From Candidatus Njordarchaeota archaeon (GTDB taxonomy: Archaea > Asgardarchaeota > Njordarchaeia > Njordarchaeales > Panguiarchaeaceae), in NCBI GenBank assembly GCA_029856685.1, contig JAHKKZ010000006.1, forward strand, positions 1-41,463: a stretch of DNA of 41,463 nucleotides. Reading direction: 5' to 3'. The notes below the pieces were generated by a model. The model was not told the DNA's origin, ran no database searches, and saw only the letters and a list, made by a program, of their open reading frames with translations. This document shows, piece by piece, positions 1,962-30,308 of this stretch. Every line of letters starts with the position of its first letter. The first letter of the stretch is position 1. The translations under genes and the position numbers were made by a program.

Positions 1962-3985
1962 TCTATTTGTACTCCTGGTTCCCAGCGGATTTTCCGTATC
2001 GCTGGGATGCCATATTTTTTTATTACGTAATCCGCGATTTCTCTAACTAATTTTAGGCCCCCACGCTTTTTGGCCATCGATTCTTCTACAGTGTTTTCTG
2101 ATACCAATTCATATACCCAAGCCACTTTTGTTTTCTGTGGATCTAATCTAAGAACACGTCCTACTCGCTGAATAAATTCTCTTTCCTGCTTCGAACCACC
2201 AACTATTATTGCAACAGACGCATCACCTATATCTACCCCTTCTTCCGCTTTACGAATAATAACTAACACTTGTAGTATGCATGCTTTAAATTTCCTTACA
2301 ATCCTTTCTTCCTCACTTCTCGAGGTTTCAGCTGTAAGTGCTACTGCTGGGGCTATCTTATTGACCTCCCTCGCTATCTGCTTTGCAAAACGAATTGTTG
2401 GTGCAAAGATGAATATCTTCTCATTTCTATGTTTCTCTACTATTGCCTTTATGACCTCGATTTTGGTGGGGTTTTCCTGGGCAACAGCTATCATTCGGTT
2501 GATGAGCTGTTTGCGTTTTAACTCATTGGTTTCTAAATCAACCTCCCGTGCTATGCTATGATACTCCAAAATTTTTTCAGGTGGTAATGGAACATAGATG
2601 CGTCTATACACCATAGGGGCTACGAGTCCTTGTCTTACCAATTCAGAGTATGTTATTGAGTACACAATATTTCCAGCAAGTTTAAAGAGTAGGACTTCAT
2701 TTTTGTCCCTCCTCTTAGGGGTTGCGGATAAAGCCATTTTGTATGGAGCTCTAAGATTCATAGCTACCCTTCTAAATGTTCTTGCTGGCACATGGTGACA
2801 TTCATCGTAAATTACTAGCCAAAACCTTCCGCTTAAAATCTCGATGTTTTTAACTCCTGACTGATAGGTAGCTACTGTTATATCTTTTATGTCCTTCTCT
2901 CCGCCTCCTAGAACCCCAATTTTATGTTTCAAAACACCAGCGAACTGAGCTATTTTTTCTCTCCACTGATTCAGCAGCCATAGGTTAGGCACAAATATTA
3001 TTGTTGGTACTTTTAATCTAACAATAGCGGCTATGGCAACAATTGTTTTTCCGCCTCCTGTAGGAAACACAATAGTTCCTTTGTTGCCATTCTCTACCCA
3101 CTTCATGAGAGCTTGAAGTTGATGCGGATACAACTTAAAGTTTTCTTTTAGGTAATCTAATTTCTGTTCGGGAAGCTGATAATCCACATCGACCTCAAAG
3201 CCATACTTTTCGAGAACCTCCTCTACGAATCCTGCTGCGAAGGGGGGTAGGTATATATCCAGGCATCCGCCTCTTTCAAATATTTTATAGGCATCTATTA
3301 TGCGCTCTTCGTAACCGCCTTCTGCGGATTCAACATAGTAGCATATTGTGCCTAACTCTTTTATCTCGTTGATAAGTTCTTCGGAGATAGGCTTAGGTAT
3401 TCGGATTATTATTCTATTTCGCTTAGTCACTCTGATTCTGACAATTTGTTTTGGTCTTTCTGGTATTGCTTCCATTAAGGCTTCTCGAAGTGGAAGCGGC
3501 AGTTTATCTATCGCTCTAGAATCCATTATTTCATAGACTCTACTAAGCTTTATTGCTAGATACATTACTGGTATTTCACCTATGTCGTTGATGGATACAG
3601 ATCTTTCAACTAATCTTATTGGAAGAAGACCACGATCGACCTGCTTCACTATCTCGTATGGATCTTCGCCTATCACCAACAAATATATCATATCGTTCTC
3701 ATTATCAATGATACTTTTGGGCACTCCTCCCATGAGTTTCTCAATAACTTCTAAAAGTCTATAGGCATACACCTGATCCACATATATCAGTTTCTTGTTT
3801 ATGAAACTAATGAATTCATCGATTCTGCTAAATATGCGCCAAGAGATAATCCAGATTTTTTGCTCTGGATCCCACCTAGCAATACGTTTCAGATATTTTG
3901 CTAATTCTTTTATCGTCTCCCATGGAAACTCCCTTGATGACTCTATTAGTGTGTCTCCTATTTTTATTCGTTGTTTAGCACCCAT
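1958..3985 (-). CDS. Long XPB/RAD25-like superfamily 2 DNA helicase
   Basis: An SF2 ATPase with PTGGGKT (residues 308-314), DECHH (394-398), SATPKRR (420-426) and a motif VI of the form QRVGRVLRLDP. The motor domains start only after residue 280 and look like archaeal XPB. The 280-residue N-terminus is longer than in usual archaeal XPB (about 450-500 residues in all). It seems to hold two similar wound regions (about 8-65 and 182-275), each with alternating beta and charged helix, perhaps damage-recognition-like domains; this is inference. It is last in a minus-strand operon after the HD protein (54-bp gap). ATG 3985 has AGGG about 9 nt upstream. XPB's usual archaeal partner Bax1 is not next to it. 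Likely role: DNA unwinding or remodelling in repair or transcription. Confidence 0.83.
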   Translation of the reverse strand: MGAKQRIKIGDTLIESSREFPWETIKELAKYLKRIARWDPEQKIWIISWRIFSRIDEFISFINKKLIYVDQVYAYRLLEVIEKLMGGVPKSIIDNENDMIYLLVIGEDPYEIVKQVDRGLLPIRLVERSVSINDIGEIPVMYLAIKLSRVYEIMDSRAIDKLPLPLREALMEAIPERPKQIVRIRVTKRNRIIIRIPKPISEELINEIKELGTICYYVESAEGGYEERIIDAYKIFERGGCLDIYLPPFAAGFVEEVLEKYGFEVDVDYQLPEQKLDYLKENFKLYPHQLQALMKWVENGNKGTIVFPTGGGKTIVAIAAIVRLKVPTIIFVPNLWLLNQWREKIAQFAGVLKHKIGVLGGGEKDIKDITVATYQSGVKNIEILSGRFWLVIYDECHHVPARTFRRVAMNLRAPYKMALSATPKRRDKNEVLLFKLAGNIVYSITYSELVRQGLVAPMVYRRIYVPLPPEKILEYHSIAREVDLETNELKRKQLINRMIAVAQENPTKIEVIKAIVEKHRNEKIFIFAPTIRFAKQIAREVNKIAPAVALTAETSRSEEERIVRKFKACILQVLVIIRKAEEGVDIGDASVAIIVGGSKQEREFIQRVGRVLRLDPQKTKVAWVYELVSENTVEESMAKKRGGLKLVREIADYVIKKYGIPAIRKIRWEPGVQID

Positions 3986-8300: not shown

Positions 8301-9332
8301 TTATTCGCCAAACTCTATTTTCTCCCAGTACTCGCCCCAAACTTCAAATGGATCTAGGTCTGCGAGATCCTCAGCAAAGTGACACATCACACGTCTACCA
8401 TCAATGATGCGATATTCAGGCAGAGCTTCCCTACAAATATCCTTAGCCATAGGACACCGATCCACGAATGGGCAGTGCTTAATAGGAATCCTAAGGTCTG
8501 GAGGGGAGCCTGGAATCGAAACAATTCTGCCCTCTTCAATTCTAGTTGGCGATGGAACCGCGGCAATAAGACCTTTTGTATATGGATGAGCTGGACGCTT
8601 ATAGATGCTAACAACGTCACCATCCTCTACAATATATCCAGCGTACATCACAGAGACCCTATCGCTCATCTCAGCGACGCATGCCAGATCATGTGAGATA
8701 TATATCATGCTCATTCCATAGCGTCTTTGTAGCTTCTTTAGAAGATCTAGAATCTGCGCCTGGATTGTGACGTCTAGTGCTGTTGTAGGCTCATCCGCAA
8801 TTAGTAGCGATGGGTTCATCGCTATTGCCATTGCTATTACTACCCTTTGTTTCATTCCTCCTGATAGTTGGTGTGGATAGTCATTCATTCGTGCTGGATC
8901 TAGTCCTACTTCGATAAAGAGCTCTCGAACAATTTCATATGCCTCCTCTTTTGAGATCCCCTCGTGGTATATTAGAGGTTCGGCGACTTGGTCTCCGACT
9001 TTGAATACGGGGTTTAGTGAGTTCATTGCTCCTTGAAAGACCATTGCTATTTCGCTCCATAGAATTTTACGCATTCGCACGTCAGGTATTTCCAGAATAT
9101 TTTCTCCTTTGAATATCACTTGCCCACTTTCTACGTACCCATTTGCTGGTAATAGCCTCATTATTGCAAGCGATGTTGTCGATTTCCCACATCCGCTTTC
9201 TCCTACAAGTCCTAGAGTTTCGCCTTCTCTTACCTTGAAGCTAACATTATTAGCCGCATATACTGTATAAGGTCCCAGTTTGTATCTGACATTTAGATTT
9301 TTTACGTCCAAAATAACATTTTCCTCCGACAT
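8301..9332 (-). CDS. OppD/DppD-type ABC transporter ATP-binding protein
   Basis: Walker [10 protein letters not shown] (44-52), Q-loop [11 protein letters not shown], signature LSGGMKQRV (155-163), Walker B LLIADEPT (175-182) and the switch histidine in ISHDLA are complete. The C-terminus carries the oligopeptide-transporter extension with [15 protein letters not shown], the Cys cluster typical of OppD/DppD. The length of 343 residues is normal. ATG 9332 follows GGTGAT by 3 nt. It would energise uptake of peptides or sugars together with OppB/OppC and OppF, but no such gene is adjacent; only the OppC start at 1-471 is in the window. Immediately upstream is the GC-rich structured block at 9377-9610. 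Confidence 0.93.
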
Positions 9333-9364
9333 GATATCACCCTACACTTTAAGCCCCCTACTAA

Positions 9365-9565
9365 TTATGAGCTATCTTCCCCGTACTGGAAGTACGGGGA
9401 ATCCCAAGACCCTCGACGGGAGGGGTTTAGCCAGCTCCGCTGAGCCCGCATCATCGCTCGGTAGATTGGCTCAGGCGGCCTCCCATCGACCCTTCTAAAT
9501 GATCCCGCCTCTAAGCGGGATTCGTGAACGGAATTATTCTCTTCAAATTCTCTTACAGACTCTCC
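9365..9565 (-). pseudogene. Possible relic of the 3' end of an IS200/IS605-type tnpB
   Basis: One minus-strand frame stays open for 66 codons across the GC-rich block, from a TGA at 9566-9568 to a TAA at 9365-9367. It reads ...RRVDGRPPEP near its middle and ends in a Ser/Arg-rich tail (NPSRRGSWDSP). Archaeal tnpB genes often end in such proline/arginine-rich tails that overlap the structured guide RNA and right-end hairpin. No zinc-ribbon Cys or RuvC motif remains. The frame may be open by chance because the block is GC-rich. If real it is a decayed fragment. Confidence 0.3.
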
Positions 9566-9610
9566 TCATTAGTCAGCCCGCAAGACCTCCAGAGAGTCTT
9601 GTATACGGGC
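9377..9610. ncRNA. GC-rich structured RNA candidate (omega-RNA-like relic or oppD leader)
   Basis: In an AT-rich genome this block is GC-rich and nearly all of it can pair. Hairpin 1 is a perfect 10-bp stem (9377-9386 with 9392-9401, five-base loop). Stem A pairs 9414-9423 with 9479-9488 with one mismatch. Stem B, nested inside, pairs 9437-9446 with 9468-9478 with one bulge. Hairpin 3 pairs 9502-9508 with 9515-9521. A last element has two exclusive folds: 9554-9564 with 9592-9603, or 9576-9586 with 9596-9601 and 9606-9610. GC-rich islands in AT-rich hyperthermophiles are often structured RNAs. Strand cannot be told from pairing; minus would make it a tnpB omega-RNA relic or an oppD 5' leader. 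RNase P and SRP RNA signatures were not seen. Confidence 0.5.
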
Positions 9611-10005
9611 CAAGTATAATAATGCACAAATTTTGTATTTTATAGGTTTCGTATTCCTATCACCACCTTTCTGGACTATATCCGCCCCTTAAATCTGATT
9701 TTGTGGCTTCATACTATGCATTATAGACGGAATTCTTCCTTGAACTAAGCTTATTCAGCGAAATCATAGAGAATTTTCTATAAGGGGACAAATATTAGGA
9801 TACGACACACAACGTATTGGCTGGAAACTCGATAAGTTTAGCACAATCAGCGGAGACTTTTCAACTTCAGGGCTTGAAGAGAAATTAATCCATGTAATGG
9901 GTAGGCATTTCAATTGAAAATCTAAGTGAATTTGCGGATACCATCCAAAAGAAACGTATTACTTAGGAAAAGTGAGGAGCTACTACCGTTGGTTTCCGCC
10001 TCCCA
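9611..10005. other. Gene-poor region between the structured block and the TIM-barrel gene
   Basis: No intact gene is seen. On the plus strand a frame is open without a usable start from about 9742 to 9919 (about 58 codons) and reads like protein in part (LGYDTQRIGWKLDKF), so it may be a gene remnant. With the structured block this makes a decayed accessory patch between two minus-strand genes. Confidence 0.3.
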
Positions 10006-10818
10006 CTATACTATGCCATTTGTTCTCAGTATTTTTTTAGCGTTTTCTACGTCTTCTGGCGAGAATCCTATGATTAGTATTGTTCCGATATAACGTCTCA
10101 TTTTTTTAAGGATATTAAGTAGAAAGCTAAGATATTTTTGGTGGTATTCGTCGTTGAGCTTGTGTGGATAGTCCCATGGGTTCATGTACTCCGAGAAATA
10201 TACCATCTTTATATACGATCTAACGGCGTCAAGTTCGGCGTCAATATTTAATCCTCGTGCTTTATATACGTCATATAGGTGTGCTATATTCAATGCAAGA
10301 TAGACCTTTTGTTTTAGGGCTCTTGAAAGCTTAATGATGTCTGTTGGTAGGACGGCCACATCGAAGGGATATGGGTAGTTCTCGGCAAATATTCTTATGC
10401 CTTCAGAATTGGCTTTTTCAACGATTGGTCTTAGGTTCTCTATTAGGGTCTGAAAGGCTTTCGACTTGAAGACTCTCTCTGAGTAGAAGAACATCCCGAC
10501 TCTCATCACTATGCTTGAGCATCCTATTTTCTCTGCTATTGATAACCAATATTTTATTTCCTCGACACTTTTTCTCCTAAGATTTGGATTGGTGGCTGCT
10601 GGGTTTATTGTATAGCCCTGGATTTTCAGTGAGCATTCAAGTCCATATTCAAATAGTGCATCCCTCACTCTCCTTATAAAACTCTCCGAGTTCTCCTTGA
10701 AGTGGGGGGGAAAAGCGAAAATGTTTATATGCCTAAATCCCATCTCTGCAGCGTATCTTATCGCTTTGAGTAGGCTTTTAGGATACATAAATATTGAGCA
10801 TACACCAAGCACAGGCAT
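10006..10818 (-). CDS. Second sugar isomerase-like TIM barrel (AP_endonuc_2 superfamily)
   Basis: A 270-residue barrel-type protein: MGFRHINIFAFPPHF, SSIVMRVGMFFYSE, IRIFAENYPYPFDV, VYLALNIAHLYDVY, IKMVYFSEYMNPWDYPHK. Glu, Asn and His at strand ends resemble the metal-site layout of xylose-isomerase-like proteins, but the sequence is clearly different from the barrel protein at 5662-6555. Endonuclease IV residues (such as the ETTAG stretch) were not found. ATG 10818 has GGTG about 9 nt upstream. It follows the XPF gene by 15 nt, so the two are probably co-transcribed. A link to DNA repair is only suggested by this placement. Confidence 0.65.
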   Translation of the reverse strand: MPVLGVCSIFMYPKSLLKAIRYAAEMGFRHINIFAFPPHFKENSESFIRRVRDALFEYGLECSLKIQGYTINPAATNPNLRRKSVEEIKYWLSIAEKIGCSSIVMRVGMFFYSERVFKSKAFQTLIENLRPIVEKANSEGIRIFAENYPYPFDVAVLPTDIIKLSRALKQKVYLALNIAHLYDVYKARGLNIDAELDAVRSYIKMVYFSEYMNPWDYPHKLNDEYHQKYLSFLLNILKKMRRYIGTILIIGFSPEDVENAKKILRTNGIV

Positions 10819-26647: not shown

Positions 26648-28435
26648 TCATCCACTCACAACATACTTGTTTAGCTTCGGTGGGCGGTCTATTGGCTTTT
26701 TTCTGAGCACTCCTAGCCGTAGCGCTAGATGTTGTAGCGGTATCGTATAGAGAATAGGTATAAATATGTCGTGTATCCTTGGAACCCGAATAACAAAGCC
26801 TGTAAACTTCTCTGCAAATGGATCCGATTCGTCAGTTATAATCAACATATCGACAAATTCTCCCACCTCACTTATCAGATCATATGTATCCTCTCGCGCC
26901 TCCAAATCTTGGGGAATAAGAAATACTATTGGGTAACCTAGCTTAACAAAAGTTTTTGTTCCATGCCTAAATTCTCCTGCGTCTAACCCTTCGGCATGTA
27001 TATGTGCAACTTCTTTAAGCTTAAGAGCGCCCTCCGCGGCTATTGAAAAGCTAGCACCTCTACCAAGAACAAAAGCATCATCAAAACCATAAATTTTCGA
27101 TGCGTATCTATCTATGACCTCTCTACATCTCTCCATGGTTTTCCTAGCCAACAATGGTAATTTCTCAAATTCTTCCTCCAGCTTTTTCTTCTCATTTTCT
27201 GGAAGATTTGAAAGTTCAACTGCCAATCTTGCAAATGTTGTGAGTTGCCCTATAAAAGTTTTTGTTGCGGGAACAGCCACTTCTATTCCAGCTGCTATAT
27301 GCAAATACACATTCGAGGCATACATCAGGGGAGTTCCTAAGCGATTTATAACGCCAATTATTATCGCGCCTTTCATTCTCGACTTTGTGACAGCTCGCAT
27401 AACATCCTGTGTTTTCCCACTTTGAGAATTAGCTATTATCGTATCTCCTGGACGAACCTTATGCAGATGAAAGTATATAAATTCAGTAGCATTTTGAACT
27501 ATGGGCTGTATTTCTGATAGTTCATTAATAATGTAGCCTCCATAGAGAGCTGAGTTATAGGACGATCCAGAACCTATCATAAAAATTTTGTCTGAGCGCT
27601 TTATGAGCTTTGTAATCATCGCAATATATTTTCTAGGCTGGGCATATCTCTGCGCCGTTATGATAAGAGGTATTTCTGACATCTCTCGTTCCATATGATA
27701 ATCAAATCCTCCCACAATTTTTCCAAGCCTTATCTTCGGCTTGATGAGTTCACCGTGTATTATACTTATCTTTGTATCATCTATCTTAATTGCACCATCC
27801 GTTATTTTTAGTGGCTCTAGGTTGTTTTTAAGTAGAATATCCGGCTCTGAGGAGACAACTATGAGCTCTTCGTCCATTCCGACATACTCTGCTAGGCCCT
27901 TAGTAAGAACATATTTAATGTTAGTTTCTTTGTCATAGAGTATTAGCGAAAATACGCCCTTAAAGGTTTCATATATTCTGCATAGTTCCTCATCGATATT
28001 CTTCGAATTATTTCGAGTATTTTCTTCTATTATATGCACTAGAAGTTCTGATATGTCTTTCCCTCTCAATATGTGACCCGATCGTAACAATTTAAGACGA
28101 AGAGAAGCGGGGTTCTCGAGTATTCCCCGTGCAACTAATATTAATCTTCCCGCGCAATCGAGAAAGGGAGGAGTATTAGGTATCGCAGGACGCCCATAGA
28201 TCGCATATCTACATATCCCAATAGCGAGACTTGCTTCACCTACATTCTCTAACTCAAGAATTCTCGCGACATTTAAACTTTTCCATACTTTTGTGTTAGA
28301 ATCAAAGTCCACCGCCAGACCGAAACTCTCATCGCCATATATGTATAGCGTCTTAAAACATTCTCTAATAATCTTCGATACTACATTCTTCTCTGTTGAG
28401 CTCGATACTAAGAAAATCCCCCCATAACCTACCAT
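26648..28435 (-). CDS. GlmS paralogue with a dead glutaminase domain
   Basis: The protein aligns end to end with GlmS but begins MVGYGGIF where GlmS has MCGIAAII, so the catalytic Cys is Val. Other glutamine-site motifs are lost too (RWATHG becomes RYAIYG, HNGIIDN becomes ARGILEN). The two SIS domains are kept: IGSGSSYNSALYGGY, SQSGKTQDVMRA, GRGASFSIAAEGALKLKEVAHIHAE, GEFRHGTKTF and a C-terminal Lys (LNKYVV). It should therefore act on a sugar phosphate without glutamine, for example as a glucosamine-6-phosphate deaminase/isomerase as in archaeal GlmD, or regulate GlmS. ATG 28435 follows AGGGG by 8 nt, 14 nt after the glmS stop. The pair is an operon. Confidence 0.85.
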   Translation of the reverse strand: MVGYGGIFLVSSSTEKNVVSKIIRECFKTLYIYGDESFGLAVDFDSNTKVWKSLNVARILELENVGEASLAIGICRYAIYGRPAIPNTPPFLDCAGRLILVARGILENPASLRLKLLRSGHILRGKDISELLVHIIEENTRNNSKNIDEELCRIYETFKGVFSLILYDKETNIKYVLTKGLAEYVGMDEELIVVSSEPDILLKNNLEPLKITDGAIKIDDTKISIIHGELIKPKIRLGKIVGGFDYHMEREMSEIPLIITAQRYAQPRKYIAMITKLIKRSDKIFMIGSGSSYNSALYGGYIINELSEIQPIVQNATEFIYFHLHKVRPGDTIIANSQSGKTQDVMRAVTKSRMKGAIIIGVINRLGTPLMYASNVYLHIAAGIEVAVPATKTFIGQLTTFARLAVELSNLPENEKKKLEEEFEKLPLLARKTMERCREVIDRYASKIYGFDDAFVLGRGASFSIAAEGALKLKEVAHIHAEGLDAGEFRHGTKTFVKLGYPIVFLIPQDLEAREDTYDLISEVGEFVDMLIITDESDPFAEKFTGFVIRVPRIHDIFIPILYTIPLQHLALRLGVLRKKPIDRPPKLNKYVVSG

Positions 28436-28449
28436 TTTCAAGCCCCTTG

Positions 28450-30258
28450 CTACTTCACAGTAACCGATTTAGCTAAGTTTCTTGGTTTATCTGGATCATA
28501 TCCCCTCTTCACGGCTACATGATATGCTAGTAGCTGCAGTGGAACAACATATAGTATCGGCATTACTTCTTCATGCATATGGGGGATCTCCACTATGTGG
28601 TCAGAAAGCTCGGATGCTTTCTGGTCGCCTTCTGGTAGCAACGATATTATCATCGCACCTCTACTCTTCATTTCCTGGATTCCAGCTATCATAGCATCAT
28701 AGTTCTTATCGTTAAGTATAATCTCAATCACAGGGAACCCCTTCTCTATTAGGGCTATTGGACCATGTTTGGATTCACCAGCTGGGTAGGATTCGCTATG
28801 GATATACGCTATTTCCTTTAGCTTTAACGATCCCTCAAGAGCTATCGGGTATCCAAGGCCGCGTCCGAGAAAGAAAGCATCGGTCTTCGTTTTCATCCAT
28901 TCAGCTATTAACATTGCTTTTTCATCAAAATGCTTCATCTTCTCAGAGAGAACTCTTGGAACCATCGACAGAGACTTCATCTGCTCTTCATAATCCACAC
29001 CCTGTGCATCGAGTATCACCTTTAATATCACTATAAAGCTTGCTATTTGTGTTGAGAACGTCTTTGTCGCCGCTACGCCTATCTCTGGTCCTGCTCCCAT
29101 GACAATGGATTTGTCGCTAATCATTCTCAGCGTGCTCCCCATGTTGTTCACCAGACTGATTATTTTTGCGCCTCGTTTCTTGGCAATTTTAACGGCTTGT
29201 ATTGTATCAAAAGTCTCTCCAGATTGAGACACAGCAAAAACAATATCATTCCGATCGACCACGTGTCCAGCAATATCCTCAAACTCAGAAGCTATCACAG
29301 CCATTGTTCTTAATCCCCATCTCGCGTATAAGTATTGTGCGTATAGAGAGGAATAATACGAAGAACCTGCACCAACAATGTAGATGAAGTCTGCGTTTAG
29401 AATATCATCAACAATCCCCTCTGCTTTATGGAGCACCGACATTATTGTTCTTTGTATCGCGTCTGGTTGCTCATAGATCTCTTTTAGCATGAAAAAGGGA
29501 AACTCTCCCTTCTGAGCTTGATCGGGGTCCCATGGAACTTCTATCGGTTCAGGCATGCCCAGGTCGGGATTTATCACATTCTCTATATATATTTCATTTC
29601 GCGACACAAAACCTATATCACCATCCCTCAAAATTAATGCTTTCTTTGTCCATTCTAAGAACGCTGGGATATCGCTAGCAACATATATTTCGCTATTCCC
29701 GACACCGATCATCAGGGGTTGTCCATTCCTAGCAAAAAATATTTTGTCCCCATCATGACGAGTCAGAATCACAAGAGCATATGTCCCTCTTAGCTTTCTT
29801 ATCGCCATTTTTATTGCTTCTAAGAAGCTTTTCCCTTGAGAATAGTAATGCTCTATTAAGTGTGATATCACCTCCGTATCCGTCTCGGATCGAAAAATAT
29901 GGCCCTTACGCTCTAGTTCTTCTCGGAGTTCCATGAAATTGTCTATTATACCATTATGAACAACCGCAATATCACCACTGCAATCTAGATGGGGATGCGC
30001 ATTAGTATCACTGACAGCACCATGCGTCGCCCAACGAGTATGAGCTATACCGATATCGGATGTCTGCTTGAGAATTCCCGATTTTTTAACAAAGTTGTCT
30101 ATTGTTCCTTTAGCCTTTGCTACAACTAAAGATGTCCCATCGAGGAAGGCAAAGCCGCAGGAATCATAGCCTCTATATTCGAGATTTTTAAGCATTCTTA
30201 CAAGCTTAGGAATGACATTACGAAAATTTTTTGAAATGATAGCTGCTATCCCACACAT
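28450..30258 (-). CDS. glmS: Glutamine:fructose-6-phosphate aminotransferase (isomerizing)
   Basis: Mature Cys1 follows the start Met directly (MCGIAAII), which fixes the start at ATG 30258, although an in-frame upstream start at 30282 exists. Glutaminase motifs: TRWATHGAVSDTNAHPH, HNGIIDN, SETDTEVI. The isomerase part has GAGSSYYSSLYAQY, SQSGETFDTI, GRGLGYPIALEGSLKLKEIAYIH, AGESKHGPIALIE and the C-terminal LAKSVTVK. About 602 residues, the normal size. It makes glucosamine-6-phosphate from fructose-6-phosphate and glutamine, the first step to UDP-GlcNAc and surface glycans. First gene of an operon with its paralogue, divergent from the Zn-ribbon gene. Confidence 0.96.
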   Translation of the reverse strand: MCGIAAIISKNFRNVIPKLVRMLKNLEYRGYDSCGFAFLDGTSLVVAKAKGTIDNFVKKSGILKQTSDIGIAHTRWATHGAVSDTNAHPHLDCSGDIAVVHNGIIDNFMELREELERKGHIFRSETDTEVISHLIEHYYSQGKSFLEAIKMAIRKLRGTYALVILTRHDGDKIFFARNGQPLMIGVGNSEIYVASDIPAFLEWTKKALILRDGDIGFVSRNEIYIENVINPDLGMPEPIEVPWDPDQAQKGEFPFFMLKEIYEQPDAIQRTIMSVLHKAEGIVDDILNADFIYIVGAGSSYYSSLYAQYLYARWGLRTMAVIASEFEDIAGHVVDRNDIVFAVSQSGETFDTIQAVKIAKKRGAKIISLVNNMGSTLRMISDKSIVMGAGPEIGVAATKTFSTQIASFIVILKVILDAQGVDYEEQMKSLSMVPRVLSEKMKHFDEKAMLIAEWMKTKTDAFFLGRGLGYPIALEGSLKLKEIAYIHSESYPAGESKHGPIALIEKGFPVIEIILNDKNYDAMIAGIQEMKSRGAMIISLLPEGDQKASELSDHIVEIPHMHEEVMPILYVVPLQLLAYHVAVKRGYDPDKPRNLAKSVTVK

Positions 30259-30308
30259 AACGGTTTCAGCCTCAACCTGCATGAAGATAATTAGATTAGA
30301 GTATCAAG

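What the first reader, a model, noticed from the sequence alone, without database searches (positions are those of the whole stretch)
9377..9610. GC-rich, almost fully self-pairing block in AT-rich DNA: uncharted structured RNA or IS200/IS605 omega-RNA relic
Seen: five stem elements within 234 nt, including a perfect 10-bp hairpin, two nested long stems with a single mismatch and a single bulge, and a last element with two mutually exclusive folds. Known: GC-rich islands in AT-rich hyperthermophiles are often structured RNAs, and tnpB guide RNAs overlap the gene's 3' end and right-end hairpin. Inference: the open minus frame (9365-9565) that ends beside hairpin 1 fits a decayed tnpB tail.
Basis: partly seen in the sequence, partly recalled or inferred. 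Interest (0 to 1): 0.72.

Follow-up and report, generated by a model that had tools for sequence, protein, structure and literature searches.

The report
Orphan structured-RNA block, possible tnpB remnant
A 234-base GC-rich stretch in an AT-rich archaeal genome really is built to fold into several strong stems and is probably an RNA gene or the leftover guide-RNA end of a small mobile element, but it has no detectable relatives, so its identity stays open.

Summary
9377-9610 has the lowest folding energy of the non-overlapping 200-nt windows sampled, and no shuffle folds as well (z -4.6 on +, -3.7 on -). It is 55% GC (62.5% over 9377-9496) against 40% in the genus sample. A screen of 1.12 Mb of this and a sister genome shows that comparably stable non-coding islands are almost all rRNA, tRNA, RNase P RNA, SRP RNA or tnpB-3'-end (omega-RNA) blocks, so "RNA-like" is a fair reading. 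The block is none of the known families: no Rfam match, and RNase P and SRP RNAs lie elsewhere. The omega-RNA reading is plausible by analogy: the sister genome holds about 8 tnpB-less omega-RNA blocks of similar size, one of them one gene away from the orthologous locus. It is not demonstrated: no tnpB remnant, no similarity above chance to any tnpB 3' end, no K-turn, no IS200/IS605 transposase in the genome, no relative in 228 genomes of the phylum. The "decayed tnpB tail" frame is not supported. The sister species lacks the block (160-bp gap instead of 673). Strand and transcription are unresolved. Best guess: a lineage-specific structured RNA, most likely a stand-alone omega-RNA-type block.

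The parts
9377..9401 (-). H1, perfect 11-bp hairpin with 3-nt loop; the 3'-terminal hairpin if read on the minus strand (the position of the right-end hairpin in an omega-RNA)
   Evidence: the strand is an inference
9413..9489 (-). Two nested stems: outer 11 bp 9413-9423/9479-9489 (one G-U on -, an A.C mismatch on +), inner 10 bp 9437-9446/9468-9478 with one bulged base
9502..9521 (-). H4, 8-bp GC-rich hairpin
9551..9610 (-). 5' element with three mutually exclusive stems of nearly equal energy (9576-9610, 9551-9585, 9558-9598)
9637..9651 (-). BRE/TATA-like string CGAAACCTATAAAAT, with TATAAAAT starting at 9644, 34 nt upstream of the block's minus-strand 5' end; possible promoter, not among the best sites by the tRNA-derived matrix
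   Evidence: sequence; matrix scan
9343..9355 (+). TACACTTTAAGCC, the best + strand match of the tRNA-promoter matrix beside the block (top 0.24% of window positions), 34 nt upstream of 9377; competing + strand promoter candidate
9365..9565 (-).
9333..10005 (.). 673-bp intergenic segment holding the block; the orthologous gap in the same-genus genome is 160 bp

Best explanation
A lineage-specific structured RNA block, most likely the stand-alone guide-RNA end (omega-RNA type) of a TnpB-family mobile element whose protein gene is gone. Read on the minus strand, it would be transcribed from near 9612 toward 9377, fold into a 5' switch-like stem, hairpin H4, the nested stems and the terminal hairpin H1, and carry as its guide the sequence after H1. 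If a TnpB encoded elsewhere can bind it, it would act in trans; otherwise it is an inert relic. Shown: the fold, its non-random stability, its absence from the sister species' orthologous gap, and the existence of tnpB-less omega-RNA blocks of similar size in that sister genome. Inferred: that it is transcribed, the strand, and the TnpB ancestry.
For: Fold stability and GC contrast. In 1.12 Mb of the genus, non-coding islands of similar stability resolve into rRNA, tRNA, RNase P, SRP or omega-RNA blocks, with only this block and one other unassigned. The sister genome carries a family of 8-11 such blocks of about 204 nt, about 8 of them without tnpB. Two groups share 5' flanks, one of which contains a TATA-like string about 33 nt upstream, and the stems covary strongly (22 pairs with double changes against 6.2 in shuffles). 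One copy lies one gene away from the orthologous locus (L187, G001:C11:200429-200632). The segment is absent at the orthologous gap in the sister. Several intact tnpB elements inspected end in a GC-rich terminal hairpin, as the block does on the minus strand. Precedent: transcribed tnpB-3'-end RNAs in Pyrococcus abyssi (PMC3124441).
Against: No significant alignment to any tnpB 3' end in the order; CM R1 finds no relative in 228 genomes and CM R2 does not score the block. No K-turn of the kind seen in several tnpB ends here. No tnpB remnant upstream, no Y1 transposase in this genome, single copy.
Confidence: 0.4

Rival explanations
1. A host-encoded structured RNA unrelated to transposons: either a free-standing ncRNA, or a roughly 280-nt 5' leader of the oligopeptide-transporter ATPase gene (ATG at 9332, minus strand) whose 5' element switches between alternative stems to control the gene.
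For: The block lies 45 nt upstream of the ATPase start on the same strand, with no T-run between them. The 5' element has three near-isoenergetic exclusive folds. A TATA-like string sits 34 nt upstream on the minus strand. Genus islands of this stability are nearly all RNAs.
Against: The ortholog of the same ATPase in the sister species has only a 160-bp upstream gap and no block. No similar structure elsewhere in the genome, for example upstream of other peptide-transporter genes. No Rfam family. The tRNA-derived promoter matrix does not favour the minus site.
Confidence: 0.33
2. A palindromic DNA element (the end or remnant of a mobile element, or another DNA-level structure) that is not transcribed as a functional RNA.
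For: It lies in a lineage-specific segment about 510 bp longer than in the sister, H1 is a perfect palindrome, and both strands fold about equally well.
Against: Complex nested stems rather than a simple terminal repeat; single copy in the assembly; no target-site duplication beyond chance-level short repeats.
Confidence: 0.2
3. A known RNA family missed by Rfam (RNase P, SRP, H/ACA or C/D sRNA).
For: Rfam under-scores this lineage: its SRP RNA falls below the gathering cut-off. The only permissive hits are C/D sRNAs at E 3.6 and 9.7.
Against: RNase P RNA is at G000:C68:16241-16571 and SRP RNA at G000:C2:387-604. The block is far longer than C/D sRNAs and the two C/D hits are about 30 bits below cut-off.
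Confidence: 0.04

Closest known systems
Stand-alone tnpB-3'-end RNAs of Pyrococcus abyssi (sRkB/sRkC, PMC3124441)
   Same: Structured intergenic RNAs of about 210-220 nt in a hyperthermophilic archaeon, found in a study that also screened for GC-rich islands; promoter close upstream; lineage-specific; sRkB runs into a downstream ORF
   Different: Those match the 3' end of a resident orfB/tnpB, occur in six copies, have K-turns bound by L7Ae and are shown to be transcribed; the block has no resident match, one copy, no K-turn and no transcript data
TnpB omega-RNA family of the sister genome (CM R2; G001:C26:53278-53482 and tnpB-less copies)
   Same: Similar size (about 204 against 234 nt), similar GC contrast, multi-stem with a terminal GC-rich hairpin, found solo in intergenic DNA
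   Different: No sequence or CM similarity; that family has a K-turn-like GAU-GA...GA element and covariation
GC-rich-island ncRNAs of AT-rich hyperthermophiles (approach used for P. furiosus and P. abyssi, described in PMC3124441)
   Same: GC contrast as the main signal in an AT-rich genome
   Different: Those were backed by comparative or expression data

Membership tests
IS200/IS605-type omega-RNA | Overlaps or directly follows the 3' end of a tnpB gene (or a recognisable remnant) | tested here: not met
   No tnpB similarity in 9333-10005 by tblastn, no zinc-finger motif in the conceptual translations, no Pfam hit
IS200/IS605-type omega-RNA | Sequence or structure similarity to a tnpB-linked copy | tested here: not met
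   CM R1 on 228 genomes and on 25 tnpB-search loci from the order; CM R2 on the window; shuffled alignment scores
IS200/IS605-type omega-RNA | Terminal GC-rich hairpin at the 3' (right) end | tested here: met
   H1 on the minus strand; seen at several tnpB elements inspected, but not specific
IS200/IS605-type omega-RNA | Guide after the right end matching a target, and processing by TnpB | not testable with these tools
   Right-end boundary unknown; the 9340-9640 search shows no other match to 9340-9376 in the genome at E <= 1 apart from the block's own palindrome; no RNA data
Archaeal tnpB-derived K-turn RNAs (sRkB/sRkC type) | K-turn (C-stem, 3-nt bulge, tandem GA) | tested here: not met
   None with a stem of 5 bp or more on either strand; six of the tnpB ends tested show a clear NAU-GA...GA form
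Mobile IS200/IS605 element | Y1 transposase (TnpA) in the genome | tested here: not met
   PF01797 absent from G000 and G001; the genomes are 79-81% complete
RNase P RNA / SRP RNA | Match to the Rfam covariance model | tested here: not met
   No match in the block; genuine copies elsewhere
Structured ncRNA gene (any) | Fold more stable than shuffles and GC contrast | tested here: met
Structured ncRNA gene (any) | Compensatory changes in homologs | tested here: inconclusive
   No homolog found to test
Structured ncRNA gene (any) | Stable transcript | not testable with these tools
   no expression data available

The most novel reading that the evidence does not exclude
A new class of structured archaeal RNA, confined to this lineage, possibly a switching leader of a peptide-transporter gene or a trans-acting guide, unrelated to any described family.
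Probability: 0.2. Interest if true: 0.6.

Novelty: new member of a known kind. Interest (0 to 1): 0.36.

Why it matters
If transcribed, it would add a structured RNA to a poorly sampled archaeal lineage. The better lead from this work is the sister genome's family of tnpB-less, covarying omega-RNA blocks with shared upstream flanks. It makes testable whether guide RNAs outlive and act apart from their TnpB gene in these archaea, and gives the block a concrete class to be tested against.

Tried and rejected
Rfam at gathering and permissive thresholds on the block: nothing. tRNA/tmRNA: none. RNase P and SRP: located elsewhere. Exact H1 and core-loop patterns in genome and viral collections: none. 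Tail peptide by the search for related loci in genomes and viruses, and by the genome search in 228 genomes: best E 0.002 with stops inside, judged chance. Distant blastn in phages and plasmids: only chance-level 22-34-base pieces. Single-sequence CM R1 across the phylum: only itself. CM R2 built from the sister's omega-RNAs: no match at the block. An eye-caught similarity (AGAGGCGGGA and GCGGGCTCAG in the same order as in the sister family) failed the shuffle test. K-turn scan: negative. Promoter matrix from 23 tRNA upstream regions: does not settle the strand. AT-rich flank 9600-10010: no relatives. A TldR-like (RNA-guided repressor beside an opp transporter) idea, from memory, was dropped: no tldR/tnpB gene is adjacent, and the paper search returned nothing.

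Full report
Observation. The block at 9377-9610 was re-read and folded. It contains an 11-bp perfect hairpin (9377-9401), two nested stems (9413-9489), an 8-bp hairpin (9502-9521) and a 5' element (9551-9610, minus orientation) with three mutually exclusive stems of -14.3 to -14.8 kcal/mol. The fold is more stable than every one of 200 dinucleotide shuffles on either strand (z -4.59 on +, -3.70 on -). In a tiling of the window by non-overlapping 200-nt pieces it has the lowest energy on both strands. By z-score alone a few coding windows are comparable or lower (e.g. 3001-3200), so stability combined with the GC contrast and non-coding position is what stands out.

What such islands are in this lineage. 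I fetched about 1.1 Mb of this genome and a same-genus genome, G001, and scanned it in 150-nt windows. The most stable non-coding islands are rRNA, tRNA (often intron-bearing), RNase P RNA, SRP RNA, or the 3' ends of tnpB genes and their solo copies. Only the window block and one G001 island (L163:8551-8760) stayed unassigned. Rfam is not fully sensitive here: the genome's own SRP RNA scores 71 bits against a cut-off of 96.5. A missing Rfam match therefore does not by itself prove novelty, but RNase P and SRP are both accounted for elsewhere.

Locus comparison. The neighbours are an oligopeptide-transporter ATPase gene (8301-9332, minus; ABC_tran plus oligo_HPY) and a xylose-isomerase-like gene (10006-10818, minus). 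Both have orthologs side by side in G001 (83% and 69% identity), where the gap between them is 160 bp instead of 673. The block therefore lies in a segment that is about 510 bp longer here. The gap sequences are too diverged to define insertion ends, and no convincing target duplication was seen.

The omega-RNA idea. Direct tests were negative. There is no tnpB remnant upstream and no zinc-finger motif, and no protein-family hit for the tail frame. There is no relative of the tail in 228 genomes of the phylum, in the genome collection or in the viral collection. A covariance model made from the block's core finds only itself in 228 genomes and only chance-level matches at tnpB loci. Alignments to the three resident tnpB 3' ends and to the sister family score within the shuffles. 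There is no K-turn and no Y1 transposase in the genome.

The indirect evidence is the sister genome's omega-RNA family. A model (R2) built from it finds 11 copies in G001, one in G005 and one in this genome (G000:C2:28165-28368). Only the G001:C26 and G005:C133 copies sit at the end of a full tnpB, and G001:C25:41456 retains a C-terminal fragment; at the others tnpB similarity is confined to the RNA block itself, apart from a few bases. Two groups of solo copies share 5' flanks: L186/L188/L191, and L189/L190. L186 and L188 carry TTTTTATACC about 33 nt upstream. The stems covary: 92% of cells paired against 40-48% in slid versions, 22 pairs with double changes against 6.2 in shuffles. Among eight solo copies alone, 11 pairs have double changes against 3.6 in shuffles. 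The alignment was fitted to the structure, which inflates these counts. One solo copy (G001:C11:200429-200632) sits one gene away from the orthologous locus.

Precedent. In Pyrococcus abyssi a GC-island search recovered 73 GC-rich regions in 67 intergenic regions, including 51 known ncRNA genes. In the same study, lineage-specific, promoter-driven RNAs of about 210-220 nt (sRkB, sRkC) were shown to belong to a set of similar sequences, one of which is the 3' end of an IS605/IS200 orfB, with K-turns bound by L7Ae (PMC3124441). This is the closest published analogue of what the block might be.

Strand. The outer stem is unbroken on the minus strand (one G-U) and interrupted by A.C on the plus strand, which leans to minus. 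Yet the plus-strand fold is about as good relative to shuffles, and total G-U counts are similar (6 on -, 7 on +). A TATA-like string CGAAACCTATAAAAT lies 34 nt upstream on the minus strand, while a promoter matrix learned from 23 tRNA upstream regions prefers a + strand site at 9343. I do not claim a strand.

Verdict. The structure is real and non-random. It is probably an RNA-type feature, not assignable to any known family with these tools, and most likely a stand-alone omega-RNA-type block (0.40), or else a host ncRNA or leader (0.33). The specific "decayed tnpB tail" frame is not supported.

Noticed in passing
Sister genome G001: C26:53278-53482 (with tnpB), C25:41456-41659 (with a tnpB fragment), and C25:38715-38918, C11:200429-200632, C8:2262-2463, C25:53635-53839, C24:36456-36657, C23:98951-99142, C28:38421-38631 (loci L182-L192): A family of about 204-nt omega-RNA blocks, most without tnpB beyond the RNA block itself, two subgroups sharing 5' flanks (one with a TATA-like string), strong covariation; looks like dispersed stand-alone omega-RNA genes or miniature elements.
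   Followed up: partly
G000:C2:28165-28368 (L184, minus): One diverged tnpB-less copy of the same omega-RNA family in the window's own genome (E 2.5e-9).
   Followed up: no
L115:387-604 (G000:C2): The genome's SRP RNA, 71 bits against a gathering cut-off of 96.5: Rfam's archaeal SRP model under-scores this lineage.
   Followed up: partly
L163:8551-8760 (G001:C25): Another unassigned, very stable non-coding island with a long perfect hairpin (CCCCGAGGAGG...CCTCCTCGGGG); no Rfam match.
   Followed up: no
3' ends of tnpB loci L061, L062, L063, L072, L075, L076: Recurrent K-turn-like element YCCC-NAU-GA-...-GA-GGGR in tnpB 3' ends of this order.
   Followed up: partly
window 26648-30282: Two adjacent long minus-strand ORFs (597 and 610 aa) that both look by eye like glutamine-fructose-6-phosphate transaminase (GlmS-like) proteins.
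   Followed up: no
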